A DNA stretch of 64,000 nt from Lachnospiraceae bacterium C1.1 (GTDB lineage: Bacteria; Bacillota; Clostridia; Lachnospirales; Lachnospiraceae), in assembly GCA_030434875.1 (NCBI GenBank), contig JAUISW010000001.1, forward strand, positions 1,499,501-1,563,500. Reading direction: 5' to 3'. Both the position numbers and the translations under genes were made by a program. The notes beneath the pieces are model-generated. The model was not told where the DNA came from, ran no database searches, and was given only the letters and a program-made list of their open reading frames with translations. Below are positions 44,619-52,298 of this stretch, in pieces; the first letter of the stretch is position 1, and each line of letters opens with the position of its first letter.

Positions 44619-45602
44619 TTATGACAATGCTGCAGTGATAATTGACATTGAATAAACTTCAAGTGCATTACATCCACGTGAGAGGTCATTGATCTGAGCA
44701 TTAAGTCCAAGAAGAATAGGACCATATGCCTCAAAGTTACCCATACGCTGAGCAATCTTATAACCGATATTTCCTGCATTGATATCAGGGAAAATGAATG
44801 TATTTGCATGTCCTGCAACTGATGAACCAGGGCACTTTGTACGAGCTACTCTGGGTGAAACTGCCGCATCAAACTGAAGCTCACCTTCTATAGGAAGCTC
44901 AGGATATCTTTCCTTAGCCTTCTTTGTAGCATTCTGCATCTTTGTAACTGCATCACCCTTACCTGATCCAAGTGTTGAATAGCTTAAGAAAGCAACCTTA
45001 GGATCAACGCCGAATACTCTTGCACATTCTACCGTCTCGCCGCAGATCTCAACAAGCTCATCCTCTGTAGGATAAAGATTGATAGCGCAGTCTGCCATCG
45101 CAAGAACCTCATTCTCGCCTGTAGCTGAAGGACGAACAAGTATGAAGCATGATGAAACAATAGAGTTACCGGGCTTTGTCTTAATGATCTGAAGTGCAGG
45201 ACGAACTGTATCAGCAGTTGAGTATGTAGCACCGCCAAGAAGGCAGTCAGCAACGCCCATCTTTACAAGCATTGTACCAAAATAGTTGCCGCCTGCAAGG
45301 ATCTTTCTTGCCTCTTCCGGCTGCATTCCCTTGCTTTTTCTGATCTCACAGAAAAGGTCTACCATTTCATCAAAACGATCATAGTTTTCTGGATCTATAA
45401 TAACAGCACCACGAATATTATATCCGGCCTCTTCTGCTGACTTTTCTATTTCATCAGGATTTCCGAGGAGAACGGGCTTTAAAAAGTTGCTTGCAAGAAG
45501 TCTTGAAGCAGCCTCAAGTATTCTGGGATCAGAACCCTCAGTGAAGACGATCGTCTTAGGATTCTTTTTAAGTTTTTCTATCATAGTACCAAAACCGAAC
45601 AT
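44619..45602 (-). CDS. pta: Phosphate acetyltransferase
   Basis: 327-residue enzyme interconverting acetyl-CoA and acetyl phosphate. VFTEGSDPRILEAASRLL, GGATYSTADTVRPALQII, SCFILVRP, SYSTLGSGKG, GELQFDAAVSP and the C-terminal HANTFIFPDINAGNIGYKIAQRMG give the full short (class I) form without the DRTGG regulatory domain. GGAGGA precedes the ATG at 45602. Acetate kinase, its usual neighbour, is not adjacent on either side. Acyl phosphate use by acylphosphatase or another kinase is possible. Confidence 0.97.
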   Translation of the reverse strand: MFGFGTMIEKLKKNPKTIVFTEGSDPRILEAASRLLASNFLKPVLLGNPDEIEKSAEEAGYNIRGAVIIDPENYDRFDEMVDLFCEIRKSKGMQPEEARKILAGGNYFGTMLVKMGVADCLLGGATYSTADTVRPALQIIKTKPGNSIVSSCFILVRPSATGENEVLAMADCAINLYPTEDELVEICGETVECARVFGVDPKVAFLSYSTLGSGKGDAVTKMQNATKKAKERYPELPIEGELQFDAAVSPRVARTKCPGSSVAGHANTFIFPDINAGNIGYKIAQRMGNFEAYGPILLGLNAQINDLSRGCNALEVYSMSIITAALS

Positions 45603-45630
45603 AAGAAATTCCTCCAAAAAAAATTGAATT

Positions 45631-46311: not shown

Positions 46312-46890
46312 ATGGCATACGATATCAAACGTTTACTTGAACTTTCAGTAAACATCAACAAGTTTATAGATCCTGATGACTTCTTTGAAGCTGTGATCAA
46401 TGAAGCCATGTATATCACAAACTGCGATGGCGGGACTATATATATTCCCGGCAAAGAAGGGCTTACATTCCAATATGTACGTACAAAATCCAAATATATA
46501 ACTATGGGTTGTGATTCAGGTGCCACTTCTCTCCCACCTATACCAATGGATAAGCACTATGCCTGTGCGCAGGTAGCGATCACTCAGGAACCTCTGAATA
46601 TACGCGATGTATATTACGCAAAAAATTTTGACTTTAATGGTACTTACGTTTTTGACAAGTCAAACAGTTACAGATCACATTCTATGCTTATACTGCCTAT
46701 GTCTTCATGTTTTGAACTCGTAGGTGTAATACAGCTGATCAATTCGATTGACCCTGAAACCGGTCATTGGACACCCTTCACAAGCGAACACGAGCAGCTC
46801 TGTAAATATCTTGCAGGTATTTCTGCTATTAAATTAGAAAATATGAAACTTAAAGGTTTATTAGCTGATAAAAGAAAGTTAGGAAAATAA
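46312..46890 (+). CDS. GAF-domain protein (first gene of TIR/cyclase operon)
   Basis: 192 residues, essentially one GAF domain (about 10-175) plus a short helical tail. INEAMYITNCDGGTIYI, DKSNSYRSHSMLILPM, ELVGVIQLINSIDPETG and FTSEHEQLCKYLAGISA are the family landmarks and are close to GAFs of cyclic-nucleotide phosphodiesterases and cyclases. Such domains bind cyclic nucleotides, haem or small molecules. As a stand-alone sensor next to a cyclase it may bind the cyclase product or an input ligand. Five bases separate it from the TIR gene. Confidence 0.88.
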   Translation: MAYDIKRLLELSVNINKFIDPDDFFEAVINEAMYITNCDGGTIYIPGKEGLTFQYVRTKSKYITMGCDSGATSLPPIPMDKHYACAQVAITQEPLNIRDVYYAKNFDFNGTYVFDKSNSYRSHSMLILPMSSCFELVGVIQLINSIDPETGHWTPFTSEHEQLCKYLAGISAIKLENMKLKGLLADKRKLGK

Positions 46891-46895
46891 CTCCT

Positions 46896-47690
46896 ATGAC
46901 CGCAAAAAAATATGTTTTTTTAAGCTATAGTTCAAAAGATGCTGATTTTATGAAGGAAATTGTGGGGCTCCTTCAGTCTATGAATATTGAATACTGGAAA
47001 GCACCCGAAAAAATCCCTGCAGGATCCAGCTATGCCAAAGAAATCAACTGTGCAATTGAAAACTGCAGCTTATTTTTGCTGGTCTTATCCCAAAATTCAC
47101 AGGAATCTATATGGGTTGAAAAAGAAATAGACTGCGCATTAAACAGCAGACGTGTAATTATTCCTTATAATATAGATAATGTTGCCCTGGTTGATGCGTT
47201 TAAATTTTATCTTAATAATGTTCAGATGGTCTTCCACAATAATTCTGTCCGAAAGTTTAAGGAGTTGGAGGATCTGCTGAAAAAATACATATTAAACACT
47301 GCTAAAATTCCATCAAAAAAACCAATGCACTCAAGCCCTACTGGCAGTAACAGTCCGCGTGCACAGGCAAAAAGTCCGCAAAGCCAACAAAGTCCACAAA
47401 ACCTACAGGTTTTTAATGACGCATACAGAAGGATAACTAAAAGAAACCTTCTCAAATTTAATCGTGTTCCCACAAGATGTGCCTATTGCGGTGGTAAATT
47501 GTTCAATACTCACGATGGAGTTTTTGTCTGTGAAAACTGTAACCGTGAGAACTATGATGATTATCAGAAAATAGAAAATTTTCTCAGAAATAATGGTAAA
47601 GCTACAGTTCCTGAAATCTCCAGGGCACTTAAGCTACCTGTAAAAGTAATTCTGAACTGGCAACATATGCGACAGGAAAATAAACTATGA
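46896..47690 (+). CDS. TIR-domain protein with zinc ribbon and HTH-like C-terminus
   Basis: 264 residues in three parts. TIR domain, about 3-125: YVFLSYSSKDADFMKEIV, AGSSYAKEINCAIENCSLFLLVLS, SIWVEKEIDCAL; Glu77 matches the catalytic Glu of NAD-cleaving TIRs. Disordered Ser/Pro/Gln linker, about 138-172. Zinc ribbon CAYC...CENC (Cys195, 198, 212, 215) followed by a winged-helix-like segment (VPEISRALKLPVKVIL). TIRs act as NADases, NAD-derived signal makers or scaffolds. The zinc-ribbon-HTH half suggests contact with nucleic acid or protein rather than ligand binding. Overlaps the cyclase by 4 bp. Confidence 0.88.
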   Translation: MTAKKYVFLSYSSKDADFMKEIVGLLQSMNIEYWKAPEKIPAGSSYAKEINCAIENCSLFLLVLSQNSQESIWVEKEIDCALNSRRVIIPYNIDNVALVDAFKFYLNNVQMVFHNNSVRKFKELEDLLKKYILNTAKIPSKKPMHSSPTGSNSPRAQAKSPQSQQSPQNLQVFNDAYRRITKRNLLKFNRVPTRCAYCGGKLFNTHDGVFVCENCNRENYDDYQKIENFLRNNGKATVPEISRALKLPVKVILNWQHMRQENKL

Positions 47691-49216
47691 GCATTGAAGT
47701 CTGGATAATAGGCGAAGACAAAAGAAATATGATCAAAAATCAGAGAATGATCAACAGGAATGGCAGTATGCGTGCTGTTTGTCTTTTATCTGAAAAAGCC
47801 TTAAAGGAAGCTATCAAAAAAACAAAAGAAGACCCCGAAATGACAGAAATCCCCTCCCTCATCGTTATGGATTACGAAATTGCAAGGAGAAATGATTTCC
47901 AAAATGTTCATCTCTTAAGAGAATACGACAAACTTGCGGGCGTTCCTCTTTTTATGGCTGTTAATGAAAGTAATGAAGCTACAGCAGATGAATGTTACGA
48001 AAACGGTGCAATGATCATTGTACATACTGAACTCACCAATTCTGAAGTTACACGAATCGAGAACATTGCCTGGCAGCATGATAATACCCGTCTTTACGAG
48101 CAGAAAATGCAGAAACAGGCTTTAGAACTTCATAATGCAAAAGAAATACTTCGACTGAACAAACAGCTCGAAGCAAGAAACGAATTTCTTCATAAAACAT
48201 TTGGACGGTATTTTTCAGATGATCTTCTAAATCTTATCCTTCAAAAGGGCGAGAATGTTTCCCTCGGAGGCGAAAAAAAAGAAGCTACGATCATGATGAC
48301 AGATTTAAGAAATTTTACTTCTTTATCAGAAAAAACAGACTCCGATATCCTTACTTCCGTCCTTAACTTTTACTTCAGTAAAATGGTAGATATTGTCTCC
48401 TATTACAGAGGAACTGTTATCGAATACATGGGAGATGGTATGCTTGCAGTTTTCGGTGCACCTCTATCAGATGACCACCATGTGGATAACGCAGTTGCTT
48501 CCGCAATAAGCATGCAGAATGCCATGCCTTCCTTAAATGAATATTTTATAGAGCATGGATTTCCCTCTCTTGAAATGGGGATTGGTCTGCATTGCGGAGA
48601 GGTATTTATAGGAAATATAGGCTCTGAAAAAATGATGCGCTACAATGTCATTGGAAATACTGTGAACGAAAGTTCAAGAATTGAAAGCTGCAGCGTAGGC
48701 GGTCAAATATTGGTCTCAAAGGAAATAATCAATAAATGTAAAAGCGCTCTGACAACCAAAGAAGGCGTAGAAATAAGCGCAAAAGGATTAAATACGCCAA
48801 TCTGGATATACGAAGTAACAGCTATTTCAGGTGATTACAATGTTTCCGTATCAAATAACAGAAATTATTCAGAAGAGTATGAAGAAGTTTCCGCAGAAAC
48901 CTATTTTCACCTCTACCCAATAAAGGGAAAACTTATATCTGATGAATTTATACCGGCTAAATTATTAAAATTATCAAAGAAAAGAATGGTCGTGGAAATA
49001 AATGATAATGATAGTCCTAAAATCGATTTATTCACAAATGTAAAAATAACATCTCCGATTGATAATAAAGAACTATACGGAGGTTTCTACGCAAAAGTAA
49101 TCGGACATAACGAAACTCTCTGGACTCTTCATTATACAGATGATAATAACGTTGTCGCAGATTTCTTAAGTCGAATAATAAAAGCTAAAAACGGAGGATT
49201 TTATGGATTCCAATGA
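47687..49216 (+). CDS. Class III nucleotidyl cyclase with receiver-like N-terminal domain
   Basis: 509 residues. Receiver-like domain about 1-125 (Asp62 in VMDYE at the phosphoacceptor place), coiled coil about 135-170, then the linker GRYFSDDLLNLIL and a cyclase domain about 195-375. Metal Asp206 and Asp250 (TDLRNF, YMGDG) and catalytic Asn327/Arg331 are present, so it should be active as a homodimer. The base-selecting pair is Glu246/Asn320 instead of the Lys/Asp or Lys/Thr of adenylyl cyclases, so the product (cAMP, cGMP or other) is open. The last 110 residues form a beta-rich domain, perhaps PilZ-like without its c-di-GMP motif. Confidence 0.9.
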   Translation: MSIEVWIIGEDKRNMIKNQRMINRNGSMRAVCLLSEKALKEAIKKTKEDPEMTEIPSLIVMDYEIARRNDFQNVHLLREYDKLAGVPLFMAVNESNEATADECYENGAMIIVHTELTNSEVTRIENIAWQHDNTRLYEQKMQKQALELHNAKEILRLNKQLEARNEFLHKTFGRYFSDDLLNLILQKGENVSLGGEKKEATIMMTDLRNFTSLSEKTDSDILTSVLNFYFSKMVDIVSYYRGTVIEYMGDGMLAVFGAPLSDDHHVDNAVASAISMQNAMPSLNEYFIEHGFPSLEMGIGLHCGEVFIGNIGSEKMMRYNVIGNTVNESSRIESCSVGGQILVSKEIINKCKSALTTKEGVEISAKGLNTPIWIYEVTAISGDYNVSVSNNRNYSEEYEEVSAETYFHLYPIKGKLISDEFIPAKLLKLSKKRMVVEINDNDSPKIDLFTNVKITSPIDNKELYGGFYAKVIGHNETLWTLHYTDDNNVVADFLSRIIKAKNGGFYGFQ

Positions 49217-50210
49217 TTTATTTGAAATGCTTGATCAGTCTCCCGATATTGACGGAATCGGAAGTAGATCGCTGAGTTTATGGTACGGACAGGAATCACT
49301 CATCATCATTATATCAGGAACTATACCAGATGCTGATTTTGCTGACAAAGACATAAGCGACCTCTTAAAAACCTCTAAATTTTTATCTGATCTCAATTGC
49401 AAGCTCTTTCTTCTGCTTTGGAAAGAGCACGATGAAATTCGTGCATATTTTAAAAGTGACAGCAGTCGTGTAAGAGCACTCGATTTCTTAAATGTTTTTA
49501 TGTCAGATGCAGGACTTGTAAAGGGTGATTCGAGGTCAGCTTCCGGAAGAATTGCTTCCGCTACACTCTGGCTTATCATGGGCGAAATGGATCTCACTAA
49601 TCAGATTGATTATTTCAAAAAAATGTCAATTTCATATTTTAAGGATTGCAATTGGATAATAGCTGATGAATACTCAAGTTCTAAACATGATGAAATTCTC
49701 AACATGACAAAATACACCAAGAAACACCTGCCCTGGGCTGTCGTAAAATCGGTTGATATCGCACCTGCAGGAAGCACTATAAATATCAAAACTCTTGAAA
49801 ATGATTCCGGGGTAAATATTACAACAGATGATAATACCTATATTATGATAGGCATTCAGGGAGAAGTCTATAATATAGATTCCAAAAAATTCGACAATAC
49901 ATATGACCTGACAGATGAACCTCTTGATATATTTGCCCGAATGACCTTGTTTATCCCTGAAGTGACAATATTACCGGACAATGAATACATGAACATAGAC
50001 GAAATTGCTCTGATCTGTTATCCCAAGAACAACAGATCAATATATGCAAAACAGCTCGATCGGAGGACTAAGGTTTTTCCTGTTTATGACCGAAAAAATT
50101 ATTTTTTAGGTAATAAAGATGATTTCCTTGCAGTTCGTACCGATGACCTGAGTGATATTTATATAATACAAAAGAGGATTTTTTTAGAGACATACGAGGA
50201 AGCAAAATGA
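49203..50210 (+). CDS. Unrecognised protein of the TIR/cyclase operon
   Basis: 335 residues, soluble, no signal peptide or TM. The first 150 residues have alternating hydrophobic strands (LSLWYGQESLIIIISGTI, CKLFLLLWKE) and a helix; the second half includes VNITTDDNTYIMIGIQGEVYNIDSK and ALICYPKNNRSIYAKQLD. I do not recognise a family. Its start (GGAGG site) is inside the cyclase end by 14 bp and its stop overlaps the MBL gene by 4 bp, so strict stoichiometric expression with the cyclase is likely. A partner or regulator of the cyclase is the simplest guess. Confidence 0.75.
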   Translation: MDSNDLFEMLDQSPDIDGIGSRSLSLWYGQESLIIIISGTIPDADFADKDISDLLKTSKFLSDLNCKLFLLLWKEHDEIRAYFKSDSSRVRALDFLNVFMSDAGLVKGDSRSASGRIASATLWLIMGEMDLTNQIDYFKKMSISYFKDCNWIIADEYSSSKHDEILNMTKYTKKHLPWAVVKSVDIAPAGSTINIKTLENDSGVNITTDDNTYIMIGIQGEVYNIDSKKFDNTYDLTDEPLDIFARMTLFIPEVTILPDNEYMNIDEIALICYPKNNRSIYAKQLDRRTKVFPVYDRKNYFLGNKDDFLAVRTDDLSDIYIIQKRIFLETYEEAK

Positions 50211-51037
50211 ATAAGCAGACTTTGACACTCAAGATTCTCGGGTGTAGAGGATCAGTTCCCATAGAGGGTGAGGATTTCAAAATTTATGGTGGTGCAACAT
50301 CGTCAATATGTGTGCTGGCTGAAACCACAAGCGACGCCGGACATGTTACAGAGGAAATTTATCTCGATTCAGGCTCGGGAATAGTAAATGCAAAACCACT
50401 TCCTGACAGTCATATTTCAATACTTATAAGCCATATGCATATAGACCATCTGATCGGAATGACCTTTTTCCCCGCACTTAGTCAGAAAGACCGTAGAATA
50501 GATATATACGCAGCAGCGAGAAATGGTCTTAAAGTCAATGATGCAATCGACAAGCTCTTTTCGCCTCCATACTGGCCTCTTAAAGTTACGGACTATCCTT
50601 CTGATGCCAGATATTATGAGCTAAAGGAAAATTTTAATATAGGAAATGTAAAGATTAAAAATATAGAGGTTAATCATCCCGGAGGCTCCTCTACTTACAA
50701 AATTGAATTTGCAGGAAAAAATATTGTTTATGCGATTGACTTTGAACACAATGAAAATGAATTAAAAAAGCTTGCTGATTTCAGCAGAAATGCTGATTTG
50801 ATGATATACGACGGTCAATATACCCCGGACGAATATCCGGGATGTTTTGGATATGGTCATTCCATTCCCGAGGTTGGCATTGAATTTGCAAAAAATAACG
50901 GAATAAAAAGAATCCTCTTCAGCCATCATGCCCCGGAACACACAGACAGTTTCCTTTCTGAATGGGAAAAAAAGATAGAAGAAATCTTCCCTGATTCATC
51001 ATTTGCAAAAGCAGGAATGGAAATAAAGATAATATAA
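50207..51037 (+). CDS. MBL-fold hydrolase, phosphodiesterase-like
   Basis: 276-residue metallo-beta-lactamase-fold protein. It has GCRGSVPIEGEDFKIYGGATSS at the start, the metal motif HMHIDHLIG (His76, His78, Asp80, His81), NHPGGSSTYKIE, YAIDFEHNE and FSHHAPEH. The RGS-P ... GG-TSS opening is that of the PhnP/cAMP-phosphodiesterase-related group, which includes Apyc1-type cyclic nucleotide phosphodiesterases. In this operon it would be expected to hydrolyse the cyclase product. Ends at a terminator. Activity on another phosphodiester cannot be excluded. Confidence 0.88.
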   Translation: MNKQTLTLKILGCRGSVPIEGEDFKIYGGATSSICVLAETTSDAGHVTEEIYLDSGSGIVNAKPLPDSHISILISHMHIDHLIGMTFFPALSQKDRRIDIYAAARNGLKVNDAIDKLFSPPYWPLKVTDYPSDARYYELKENFNIGNVKIKNIEVNHPGGSSTYKIEFAGKNIVYAIDFEHNENELKKLADFSRNADLMIYDGQYTPDEYPGCFGYGHSIPEVGIEFAKNNGIKRILFSHHAPEHTDSFLSEWEKKIEEIFPDSSFAKAGMEIKII

Positions 51038-51041
51038 ATAG

Positions 51042-51079
51042 TAAAGGAAATTCGAGCTCAAGTCGGATTTCCTTTATTT
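51042..51079. terminator. Terminator between the cyclase operon and tmcAL
   Basis: TAAAGGAAAT (51042-51051) and ATTTCCTTTA (51068-51077), a perfect 10-bp stem between convergent genes. Confidence 0.75.
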
Positions 51080-52298
51080 ATATCTTTATAAACCTCTCTT
51101 TATAAGGATTTCTAAATTTTTGTCTGAATTTTTCCGCGATCTTTGTCTCATATAGAAATTCTCTCTGCATTTCTTTTTTGAAAAATTCGAGAGCCTTGCC
51201 CGTCAAAATTTTTTTGGCATCAGAAGATCTCATAATGACCGGCACTTTAGAATTTTTGCTAAAGTGTGAGATAAGTTCCATGGATTCTTTTCGACATCCA
51301 ATAACCCTGAGATAATAAGGATCAGAAAAATCTTTTTGCTTCATATTCAATAAAATATGTGTCAACGCCCTGCTCACAGAACTATAAGTCCTGTTTTTGC
51401 TTTTTAGTATTTGCGTAAAATCAGAAAAGGACCTGTATTCATCAAGTCTGCTTATGATCCTGTCCTCCAGATCATCCGAGATATCAAAATAGTTTTTATT
51501 CTTTTCAAAATTCATTCTTAGGACATATCCAAGTTCTGCTGAAAAATCATCTGCACTGATCGGACAGCTCTGTTTCCAGATATCATTAAGCATTTCAACT
51601 GACCCTTCCGGCATAAATCCATTAAAGTCAGAAGGATTAAAATCACTTTCTCTTTCGGTCTTTTCCATTAAATTCCGTATAGATCTTGCAGATGTAAACT
51701 TTCCTTCTGTTATTTCACTATTATAGTCACTGTCTTTTCTGCTGATTGTATAAGGCTCAATATTACTTCCGGTTCTTTCAATTGCCTTCAGATATTCCAC
51801 CGCAAGTATGTTGTTGGGACTTTCAAGAATTCTTTCATCACAAACACCATACTCTGCAAGAGTTTTTTCACGGGCAGCAGGAAAACTATATCCCTTGGAA
51901 AGATATCTTAAAAGGATCGCTTTGTATCTGTCATCTTCTTTAGCCAGAATATTACTGATCCTCTTTAAGGGTTCAAGCTCTCCTTCCTCTGTTCCAAATG
52001 CAAGATAATCTACACAGCCTAAAGCATTAAAAAGCTTCACCGCTCCCGAAGCAAAAAACTCTGCACTACCTGTTGACGTATAAGAGTCAAGCAAAATCAC
52101 CGCAGATGCTCCAGCTTTCAAAGCCATTTCTGTCCTTTCCCTGTAACTCATTATTGCAGCAGTTCCACGCTGCACAAAATTTCCGGACATGGCTATAACG
52201 CAAAAATCGGCACCTGTATTCTTCATACAGGTGTCGATAAGATATTTGTGTCCGTTATGAAAAGGATTAAATTCTGCTATTATTCCAAGAATTTTCAT
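51078..52298 (-). CDS. tmcAL: tRNA(Met) cytidine acetate ligase
   Basis: 406-residue enzyme making N4-acetylcytidine at the elongator tRNA-Met wobble base from acetate and ATP. GIIAEFNPFHNGHKYLI is the HxGH nucleotidyltransferase motif; MSGNFVQRGTAAIMSYRERTEMALKAGA and FTSARSIR complete it. The C-terminal half is the helical tRNA-binding part. Formerly annotated as DUF795/YlbM. Confidence 0.95.
   Translation of the reverse strand: MKILGIIAEFNPFHNGHKYLIDTCMKNTGADFCVIAMSGNFVQRGTAAIMSYRERTEMALKAGASAVILLDSYTSTGSAEFFASGAVKLFNALGCVDYLAFGTEEGELEPLKRISNILAKEDDRYKAILLRYLSKGYSFPAAREKTLAEYGVCDERILESPNNILAVEYLKAIERTGSNIEPYTISRKDSDYNSEITEGKFTSARSIRNLMEKTERESDFNPSDFNGFMPEGSVEMLNDIWKQSCPISADDFSAELGYVLRMNFEKNKNYFDISDDLEDRIISRLDEYRSFSDFTQILKSKNRTYSSVSRALTHILLNMKQKDFSDPYYLRVIGCRKESMELISHFSKNSKVPVIMRSSDAKKILTGKALEFFKKEMQREFLYETKIAEKFRQKFRNPYKERFIKI

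What the first reader, a model, noticed from the sequence alone, without database searches (positions are those of the whole stretch)
46312..51037. Five-gene GAF / TIR-zinc-ribbon / class III cyclase / unknown / MBL phosphodiesterase operon
The genes are almost fused: 5-bp gap, ATGA overlap, 14-bp overlap, ATGA overlap. Seen: a cyclase with both metal Asp and the catalytic Asn/Arg, a TIR with the catalytic-type Glu77, and an MBL protein of the PhnP/Apyc1-related group. Known: Pycsar pairs class III-type cyclases with TIR effectors, and Apyc1-like MBL enzymes destroy the signal. Inference: this is a self-contained cyclic nucleotide circuit with synthesis, sensing (GAF), output (TIR) and removal. 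It differs from Pycsar because the TIR lacks a nucleotide-binding domain and the cassette carries its own phosphodiesterase, so it may be a signalling or stress system.
Basis: partly seen in the sequence, partly recalled or inferred. Interest (0 to 1): 0.82.

Follow-up and report, generated by a model that had tools for sequence, protein, structure and literature searches.

The report
TIR and nucleotide cyclase signalling cassette
A tightly packed set of gut-bacterium genes pairs an enzyme likely to make a cyclic nucleotide signal with a TIR protein, a linking protein and an enzyme likely to destroy the signal; its core recurs in dozens of related genomes and matches no named system we found.

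Summary
The five genes, coordinates and overlaps are as described. The conserved unit is only three of them: TIR-zinc ribbon, cyclase, gene 4. It occurs in at least 7 other genomes of 299 Lachnospiraceae sampled; a TIR-based scan gave 52 usable loci, 50 with the cyclase and 49 with gene 4. Most carry a GAF-GGDEF protein (33 of 52) and an endonuclease IV/CbiR-like barrel (31 of 52); one clade, including the window, has the metallo-beta-lactamase (MBL) protein instead of the barrel, mostly with a lone GAF. The cyclase is receiver-cyclase-PilZ fold, keeps its catalytic residues and has Glu at the base selector (49 of 49), as in guanylyl cyclase Cya2, so cGMP is the likeliest product. Gene 4 is a DHHA1-fold protein without the DHH catalytic domain; 14 of 33 full-length relatives lie beside a same-strand TIR gene. 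The MBL fits atypical class II phosphodiesterases; its relatives lie in other cyclase operons (10 of 13 regions). A self-contained circuit is well supported; Pycsar membership is not, and defence is unproven. No assay was possible.

The parts
46312..46890 (+). g1: stand-alone GAF domain protein, 192 aa; candidate sensor, its GAF is closest to those of GAF-HD-GYP-type proteins
   Evidence: Pfam GAF 1.7e-9; g1 profile matches 10 of 10 GAF-HD-GYP-type proteins (best 3.9e-56; four of the ten confirmed by Pfam) and 12 of 38 GAF-GGDEF proteins, duplicates of five contigs included (best 1.1e-6)
46896..47690 (+). g2: TIR - zinc ribbon - HTH-like tail, 264 aa; candidate output enzyme
   Evidence: TIR_2 1.3e-18; tail matches YvyF TIGR03826 3.6e-6, 8.1e-16 in relative L033, all below the curated cut-off
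47124..47126 (+). TIR Glu77 codon (catalytic-type Glu)
   Evidence: invariant 8 of 8 in a set found through g4; 53 of 53 in a set found partly by a peptide pattern that contains it
47469..47660 (+). zinc ribbon + HTH-like part of g2
   Evidence: four Cys each conserved in 52 of 53
47687..49216 (+). g3: receiver - class III cyclase - PilZ-fold protein, 509 aa
   Evidence: Guanylate_cyc 2e-27; best solved relatives 6fht/2w01
47687..48061 (+). degenerate receiver domain
   Evidence: PF00072 in 22 of 25 N-termini, best 1.2e-9, window 0.0028, below cut-off
48266..48820 (+). class III cyclase catalytic domain
   Evidence: D206, D250, N327, R331, K366 in 49 of 49
48422..48424 (+). base-selector codon Glu246, equivalent to Cya2 Glu488
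   Evidence: alignment; 49 of 49 Glu; Lys in 10 of 10 cyclases of the other MBL operons
48878..49201 (+). C-terminal PilZ fold (canonical c-di-GMP motif absent)
49203..50210 (+). g4: DHHA1-fold + PGDYG-like protein, 335 aa, no DHH catalytic domain; candidate coupling/ligand-binding subunit
49248..49646 (+). DHHA1-fold part of g4
49650..50207 (+). PGDYG-like C-terminal part of g4
   Evidence: PF14083 in 30 of 47 members scanned, best 7.7e-5; no hit in the window member itself
50207..51037 (+). g5: MBL-fold protein, candidate cyclic-nucleotide phosphodiesterase, 276 aa
   Evidence: Lactamase_B_2 4.8e-14
50429..50449 (+). SHMHIDH metal motif
   Evidence: [TS]HxHxDH in 7 of 7 cassette MBLs and 12 of 14 other relatives
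51040..51078 (+). terminator-like stem-loop after g5
   Evidence: 1 found, 0.3 expected

Best explanation
This is one version of a conserved chromosomal signalling cassette of Lachnospiraceae, core = TIR-zinc ribbon / receiver-cyclase-PilZ / DHHA1-PGDYG protein, with exchangeable sensors in front and a candidate dedicated phosphodiesterase at the edge. Proposed working: (1) the sensor (GAF here; GAF-GGDEF or a histidine kinase with response regulator in relatives) controls the cyclase through its receiver-like and PilZ-fold domains [inferred]; (2) the cyclase makes a 3',5'-cyclic nucleotide, most likely cGMP because the selector is Glu as in Cya2 [active-site residues shown, product inferred]; (3) g4, a DHHA1 protein without the catalytic domain, fused to the cyclase in some relatives and related to proteins encoded beside TIR genes, binds the signal and gates the TIR [inferred]; (4) the TIR, with its Glu intact, processes NAD or makes a nucleotide product as output [inferred]; (5) the MBL enzyme, or in most relatives an endonuclease IV/CbiR-like barrel, hydrolyses the signal and resets the circuit [family and residues shown, substrate inferred].
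For: Core linkage: 50 of 52 TIR loci have the cyclase and 49 of 52 gene 4; L052 and L071 are cut by contig ends, L092 is the one exception. TIR-cyclase gap median 22 bp (49 of 50 rows at most 100 bp), cyclase-g4 median 6 bp (39 of 41 unfused rows). Cyclase and g4 fused in 8 rows, barrel and GAF-GGDEF fused in 6. Distance matrices of 49 rows agree: r 0.77, 0.68, 0.91; 0 of 999 permutations reach them (shared ancestry alone would also give this). Cyclase residues 49 of 49; selector Glu 49 of 49 against Lys 10 of 10 in the cyclases of the other MBL operons. Cya2 E488K switches GTP to ATP (PMC5995499, passages). MBL: class-defining motif and Pfam family (PMC9293780, passages), and a class III cyclase in the same fetched region in 10 of 13 regions of its relatives. 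Barrel: 31 of 31 at 11 of 12 metal-type positions checked, 30 of 31 at the other. g4-TIR link: 14 of 33 full-length DHH relatives have a same-strand TIR gene within 600 bp, and none of the 33 loci holds a cassette-type cyclase. The cyclase is the only PF00211 match of the genome.
Against: No activity, ligand or interaction was measured. The canonical PilZ c-di-GMP motif is absent (position 428 is not D/N in most rows and 433 is not G), so c-di-GMP input is not shown; the window version has no GGDEF gene beside it. The second selector is Asn (47 of 49), not the Cys of many GCs (recalled) or the Gly of Cya2, so GTP is not certain. The MBL scores higher to RNase Z (59 bits) than to the cyclic-nucleotide model (31.6 bits), both far below cut-offs; its only solved relatives by sequence are RNase Z. 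g4's ligand is unknown; 15 of 33 DHH relatives have no TIR gene within 600 bp on either strand; DHHA1 folds also occur in alanyl-tRNA synthetase and pyrophosphatases. TIR-Glu conservation in the large set is partly built in by the search pattern.
Confidence: 0.55

Rival explanations
1. It is an anti-phage abortive-infection system, a relative of Pycsar: infection triggers the cyclase, the signal switches on the TIR NADase, the cell dies; the MBL or barrel prevents accidental firing.
For: Cyclase and TIR in one operon; PADLOC PycC models hit the cyclase (4.2e-24) and ThsB models the TIR (5.4e-9); PycTIR depletes NAD (PMC11224242, passages). Two of 81 flank proteins scanned match several defence helicase models strongly (down to 1.6e-148) and single ones match DinG, mad3 and other models.
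Against: TIR has no CNBD hit; cyclase nearest to Cya2 in the PDB, cytidylate cyclase 8jsf only 5.8e-5; in the 81 flank proteins no PADLOC family matched more than 2 at 1e-20, and the repeated ones are helicase models hit together, as a generic SNF2 helicase would (my reading; no background run); TIR and g4 not found in viral contigs; g4 absent from plasmids at 1e-5; sensors are GGDEF and histidine kinases; neighbours look like housekeeping genes by eye, the same ones in several relatives.
Confidence: 0.2
2. The flow runs the other way: the TIR makes a nucleotide product from NAD, g4 (DHHA1) binds that product, and g4 tunes the cyclase; cNMP is the output, read by a CRP-like regulator.
For: DHH-DHHA1-PGDYG relatives are encoded beside TIR genes without any cassette-type cyclase; g4 is fused to the cyclase in 8 rows; the genome has 5 PF00027 proteins; DHHA1 domains occur in nucleotide phosphodiesterases such as DhhP and GdpP.
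Against: A degrading DHH enzyme beside TIRs need not mean that g4 is a binding remnant; PF00027 proteins are common (10 of 14 control genomes) and not linked to the cassette.
Confidence: 0.25
3. The MBL protein is not a cyclic 3',5'-nucleotide phosphodiesterase but an RNase Z-like or other phosphodiesterase acting on different substrates; only genes 2-4 form the circuit.
For: Best NCBIfam matches are RNase Z and the only solved relatives by sequence are RNase Z; it is absent from most cassettes (7 of 53 rows carry it).
Against: Relatives occur in MBL / GAF-HD-GYP / cyclase operons (10 of 13 regions with a cyclase) and beside cNMP-binding-SpoIIE genes (L116, L129); atypical class II PDEs are themselves close to RNase Z (PMC9293780, passages).
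Confidence: 0.15
4. The genes are neighbours without joint function.
For: None beyond the general possibility.
Against: Recurrence of cyclase beside TIR in 50 of 52 loci, fusions and overlaps.
Confidence: 0.02

Closest known systems
Pycsar (PycC pyrimidine cyclase + PycTIR or PycTM)
   Same: class III-fold cyclase and TIR encoded together
   Different: TIR lacks the CNBD; cyclase nearest to guanylyl cyclase Cya2 with Glu selector; extra sensor, g4 and phosphodiesterase genes; chromosomal context that looks like housekeeping genes
Cya2, CHASE2-guanylyl cyclase of Synechocystis (2w01; E488K variant in 6fht)
   Same: catalytic domain (E 2.6e-45) and Glu at the selector
   Different: soluble receiver-cyclase-PilZ architecture; Asn instead of Gly at the second selector
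Atypical class II PDEs (Rv1339, B. subtilis YhfI, C. glutamicum CpdA) and phage Apyc1
   Same: PF12706 and [TS]HxHxDH motif
   Different: low similarity to the named models; host-encoded inside a cyclase operon, not phage-encoded
DHH/DHHA1 phosphoesterases (DhhP, GdpP, NrnA)
   Same: DHHA1 fold in g4
   Different: no DHH catalytic domain; C-terminal PGDYG-like part
Thoeris (TIR ThsB + receptor ThsA)
   Same: TIR paired with a candidate nucleotide-binding partner
   Different: partner is DHHA1-PGDYG rather than ThsA (ThsA architecture recalled); a cyclase is present
Lachnospiraceae MBL / GAF-HD-GYP / FecR-type / membrane cyclase operons found here
   Same: nearest relatives of g5 and of the GAF of g1
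   Different: cyclase has Lys/Thr adenylyl signature (10 of 10); no cassette TIR or g4 in the 13 regions

Membership tests
Pycsar | cyclase of the PycC family making cCMP or cUMP | tested here: inconclusive
   PADLOC PycC 4.2e-24 but nearest solved relative is Cya2; selector Glu against Arg142 in EaPycC, which lies at the same distance from the second metal Asp (PMC11224242, section 6); product not measurable here
Pycsar | effector carries a cyclic-nucleotide-binding domain (PycTIR) | tested here: not met
   g2 has TIR and zinc-ribbon/YvyF-like matches, no CNBD match in Pfam or PADLOC at 0.1
Pycsar | anti-phage activity | not testable with these tools
   needs phage challenge
Class III nucleotide cyclase | two metal Asp, transition-state Asn/Arg, phosphate-binding Lys (roles recalled) | tested here: met
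   49 of 49 each
Guanylyl cyclase specificity | Glu at first base selector | tested here: met
   49 of 49; alignment to 2w01
Guanylyl cyclase specificity | GC-type second selector residue | tested here: inconclusive
   Asn 47, Ser 2 of 49; Cya2 has Gly
Atypical class II PDE | PF12706 with [TS]HxHxDH | tested here: met
   definition from PMC9293780 passages
Apyc1-type cyclic-nucleotide-degrading phosphodiesterase | NCBIfam NF041851 at its cut-off | tested here: not met
   31.6 bits, cut-off 400
RNase Z | TIGR02651 at its cut-off | tested here: not met
   59 bits, cut-off 292.95
DHH phosphoesterase | DHH catalytic domain | tested here: not met
   g4 begins at the DHHA1 region of the relatives; no Pfam DHH
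c-di-GMP-binding PilZ | PilZ fold | tested here: met
c-di-GMP-binding PilZ | RxxxR and [DN]xSxxG motifs (recalled) | tested here: not met
   read by eye on the alignment; K415 49 of 49 and S430 48 of 49 are kept, but 428 is D/N in few rows and 433 is R in 34 of 49
TIR NADase | catalytic Glu in the TIR domain | tested here: met
   Glu77, 8 of 8 in the g4-found set
TIR NADase | NAD cleavage | not testable with these tools
   needs assay

The most novel reading that the evidence does not exclude
The cassette is a so far unnamed kind of signal-integration unit: diverse inputs (GAF ligand, c-di-GMP synthesis, phosphorelay) feed a cGMP-making receiver-cyclase-PilZ enzyme, a DHHA1-PGDYG subunit couples it to a TIR enzyme, and a swappable phosphodiesterase (endonuclease IV/CbiR-like or MBL) resets it. 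That would make it a host-encoded cGMP-TIR pathway of gut and rumen Firmicutes, with DHHA1-PGDYG proteins as general partners of bacterial TIRs.
Probability: 0.3. Interest if true: 0.9.

Novelty: new variant of a known kind. Interest (0 to 1): 0.7.

Why it matters
Bacterial TIRs are known mainly as defence effectors (recalled); a conserved, sensor-swappable TIR-cyclase unit with ordinary-looking neighbours suggests TIR signalling outside phage defence, or a defence system wired into c-di-GMP and phosphorelay signalling. The window's genome has a single class III cyclase, so the role of its signal can be tested by one deletion. It also points to DHHA1-PGDYG proteins as recurrent partners of TIRs, a testable rule across many genomes, and shows one clade exchanging its candidate phosphodiesterase for an unrelated one.

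Tried and rejected
Whole five-gene unit as the ancestral system: rejected, the MBL marks one clade. Truncation of GAF-GGDEF as origin of g1: rejected, g1 matches GAF-HD-GYP-type GAFs far better. TIR-only loci L063 and L092: L063 was an artefact of my longest-ORF filter (an antisense ORF hid the cyclase and g4; corrected by six-frame search); L092 is a genuine lone second TIR. Mobile or viral origin: viral contigs none for g4 or TIR; plasmids none for g4; phages one unannotated 8.3-kb record at 29% over 76% of g4, not followed. Pfam scan of the cyclase C-terminus gave only scattered weak hits and Foldseek no match below 0.001; the VIA alignment shows the PilZ fold. PilZ proteins of the own genome were fetched but not used. 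Order and phylum surveys with the TIR profile (392 and 398 genomes) mostly found matches to the tail alone (YvyF-like, 160-aa frames); full-length matches in those draws only in the own genome and G188, partial ones in a few others. hhalign of receiver profiles was weak (76.5%); Pfam was clearer. Promoter scan is suggestive only (9 found on both strands, mean 4.1 expected). PADLOC on flanks: described under the first rival, without background. An AU test of the MBL clade was not run; L068 is a long branch and its place is less sure. Literature: the listings of searches show no title or abstract start that describes this cassette; the library is open-licence PMC only, and most listed papers were not opened.
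Full report
OBSERVATION. The unit runs on the + strand between opposite-strand genes: 44619-45617 (read by eye as phosphate acetyltransferase) and 51078-52298 (read by eye as a TmcAL-type protein). A terminator-like stem follows g5. The window's assembly has 4.23 Mb in 3 contigs, and its nearest record among the loci fetched is a Lachnospiraceae MAG contig (L052: neighbouring proteins 97-100% identical, cut inside the TIR gene).

WHAT IS CONSERVED. A g4 search over 299 family genomes, own included, matched 52. Seven genomes besides the window's carry TIR-cyclase-g4 in a row. Of the weaker places I fetched 13 and later 20 more, one of them the own genome's paralogue; the rest were not fetched. 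These 33 are proteins of about 500 aa (one cut by a contig end), 30 of them with DHH-type motifs by a text test, whose C-terminal half resembles g4, and none of the 33 loci holds a cassette-type cyclase. A TIR-profile scan of named genomes returned 54 loci; two (L104, L105) were weak and were dropped, and seven of the remaining 52 are the same contigs as the seven above, as their contig lengths show. By six-frame profiles (E below 1e-20, window not counted), 50 of 52 have the cyclase, 49 g4, 33 GGDEF, 31 the barrel, 6 the MBL and 5 g1. The scan used two exact peptide patterns, so 52 is a lower bound and the set is biased towards TIRs that keep those peptides, one of which includes Glu77.

TWO ARCHITECTURES. 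Of 53 rows (52 loci and window), 27 have barrel + GAF-GGDEF + TIR + cyclase + g4, and 5 including the window have GAF + TIR + cyclase + g4 + MBL (by ORFs; L063 corrected). On a quick cyclase tree of 49 rows the seven MBL-bearing rows form one side of a branch (SH-aLRT 99, one change); L068 is a long branch, and no AU test was run. None of the seven shows a barrel, though several have little upstream sequence. L068, the first branch inside the group, has both the MBL and an inverted GAF-GGDEF, which looks like an intermediate. L086 has a hybrid histidine kinase with GAF and a response regulator directly upstream, and L055 a similar pair (Pfam run on both L086 proteins and on the L055 regulator); L055 has no g1. 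L059, L063, L069 and L074 have an 873-900 aa protein there that looks like a histidine kinase by eye. The sensor is thus the exchangeable part.

PHOSPHODIESTERASES. g5 has PF12706 and SHMHIDH, the signature of atypical class II PDEs, which are described as close to RNase Z (PMC9293780, passages). Related MBL enzymes from B. subtilis prefer cAMP/cGMP, Apyc1 cleaves broadly (PMC9117128, passages). In 150 family genomes 23, own included, had a match to g5; of 14 other places with E below 1e-28 I fetched regions around 13 (G048 was left out), and 10 contain a class III cyclase, typically after GAF-HD-GYP-type and FecR-type genes (HD-GYP shown by Pfam in four, FecR in L108 only; the membrane sensor read as CHASE2 by eye). 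Of the three without, L145 and L146 end at contig ends and L143 runs off its end inside a similar gene. The barrel of the other architecture is PF01261 and matches deoxyribonuclease IV (4.7e-12) and the cobamide phosphodiesterase CbiR (2.2e-8), below their cut-offs. Of 12 metal-type positions checked, 11 are invariant in 31 of 31 and one in 30 of 31 (ligand roles recalled). I infer that the two clades use unrelated phosphodiesterases for the same job.

FUNCTION AND DEFENCE. The GGDEF partners keep GGEEF in 33 of 33 proteins (one search printed 35 because two were counted twice). Flanks look like housekeeping genes by eye. PADLOC at 1e-20 on 81 flank proteins gave no family in more than 2; two proteins match several helicase models strongly (down to 1.6e-148) and a few single matches include DinG (4.5e-114) and mad3 (3.1e-41); no background was run. 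These points lower, but do not exclude, a defence role.

VERDICT. A real, conserved cassette for which the literature searches showed no description (listed under Tried and rejected). Steps shown: gene linkage, domain composition, intact catalytic residues, one clade with the MBL. Steps inferred: product, receptor, direction of flow, TIR output, phosphodiesterase substrate.

Noticed in passing
L039, L040, L041, L047, L048, L050, L051, L164, L168, L169, L178, L179, L180, L182: DHH-DHHA1-PGDYG phosphoesterases encoded next to TIR genes on the same strand, 14 of 33 loci examined, several TIR-beta-propeller: a possible second TIR module without a cyclase.
   Followed up: partly
L136-L142, L144, L147, L148: Operons MBL / GAF-HD-GYP-type (or GAF-GGDEF, or cNMP-binding-SpoIIE) / FecR-type / membrane class III cyclase with Lys-Thr adenylyl signature.
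   Followed up: partly
L105 5484-10126: DHH-DHHA1 gene overlapping a 1041-aa TIR gene outside the cassette, in a Clostridia MAG.
   Followed up: partly
L035 3302-4720: A second TIR protein with DUF6273 (472 aa) directly upstream of the cassette in G212.
   Followed up: no
L092 6959-7660: Lone cassette-type TIR in a genome that also has a full cassette (L096).
   Followed up: no
L084: Record titled Bacteroidales MAG holds the cassette, but a contig of the same length is filed in the window's own family (G188): the title is probably wrong.
   Followed up: no
G000:C1:1903398-1903745 (L163): The own genome has a small zinc-ribbon protein (YvyF-like) matching the tail of the TIR gene, hinting at a flagellar-regulation link.
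   Followed up: no
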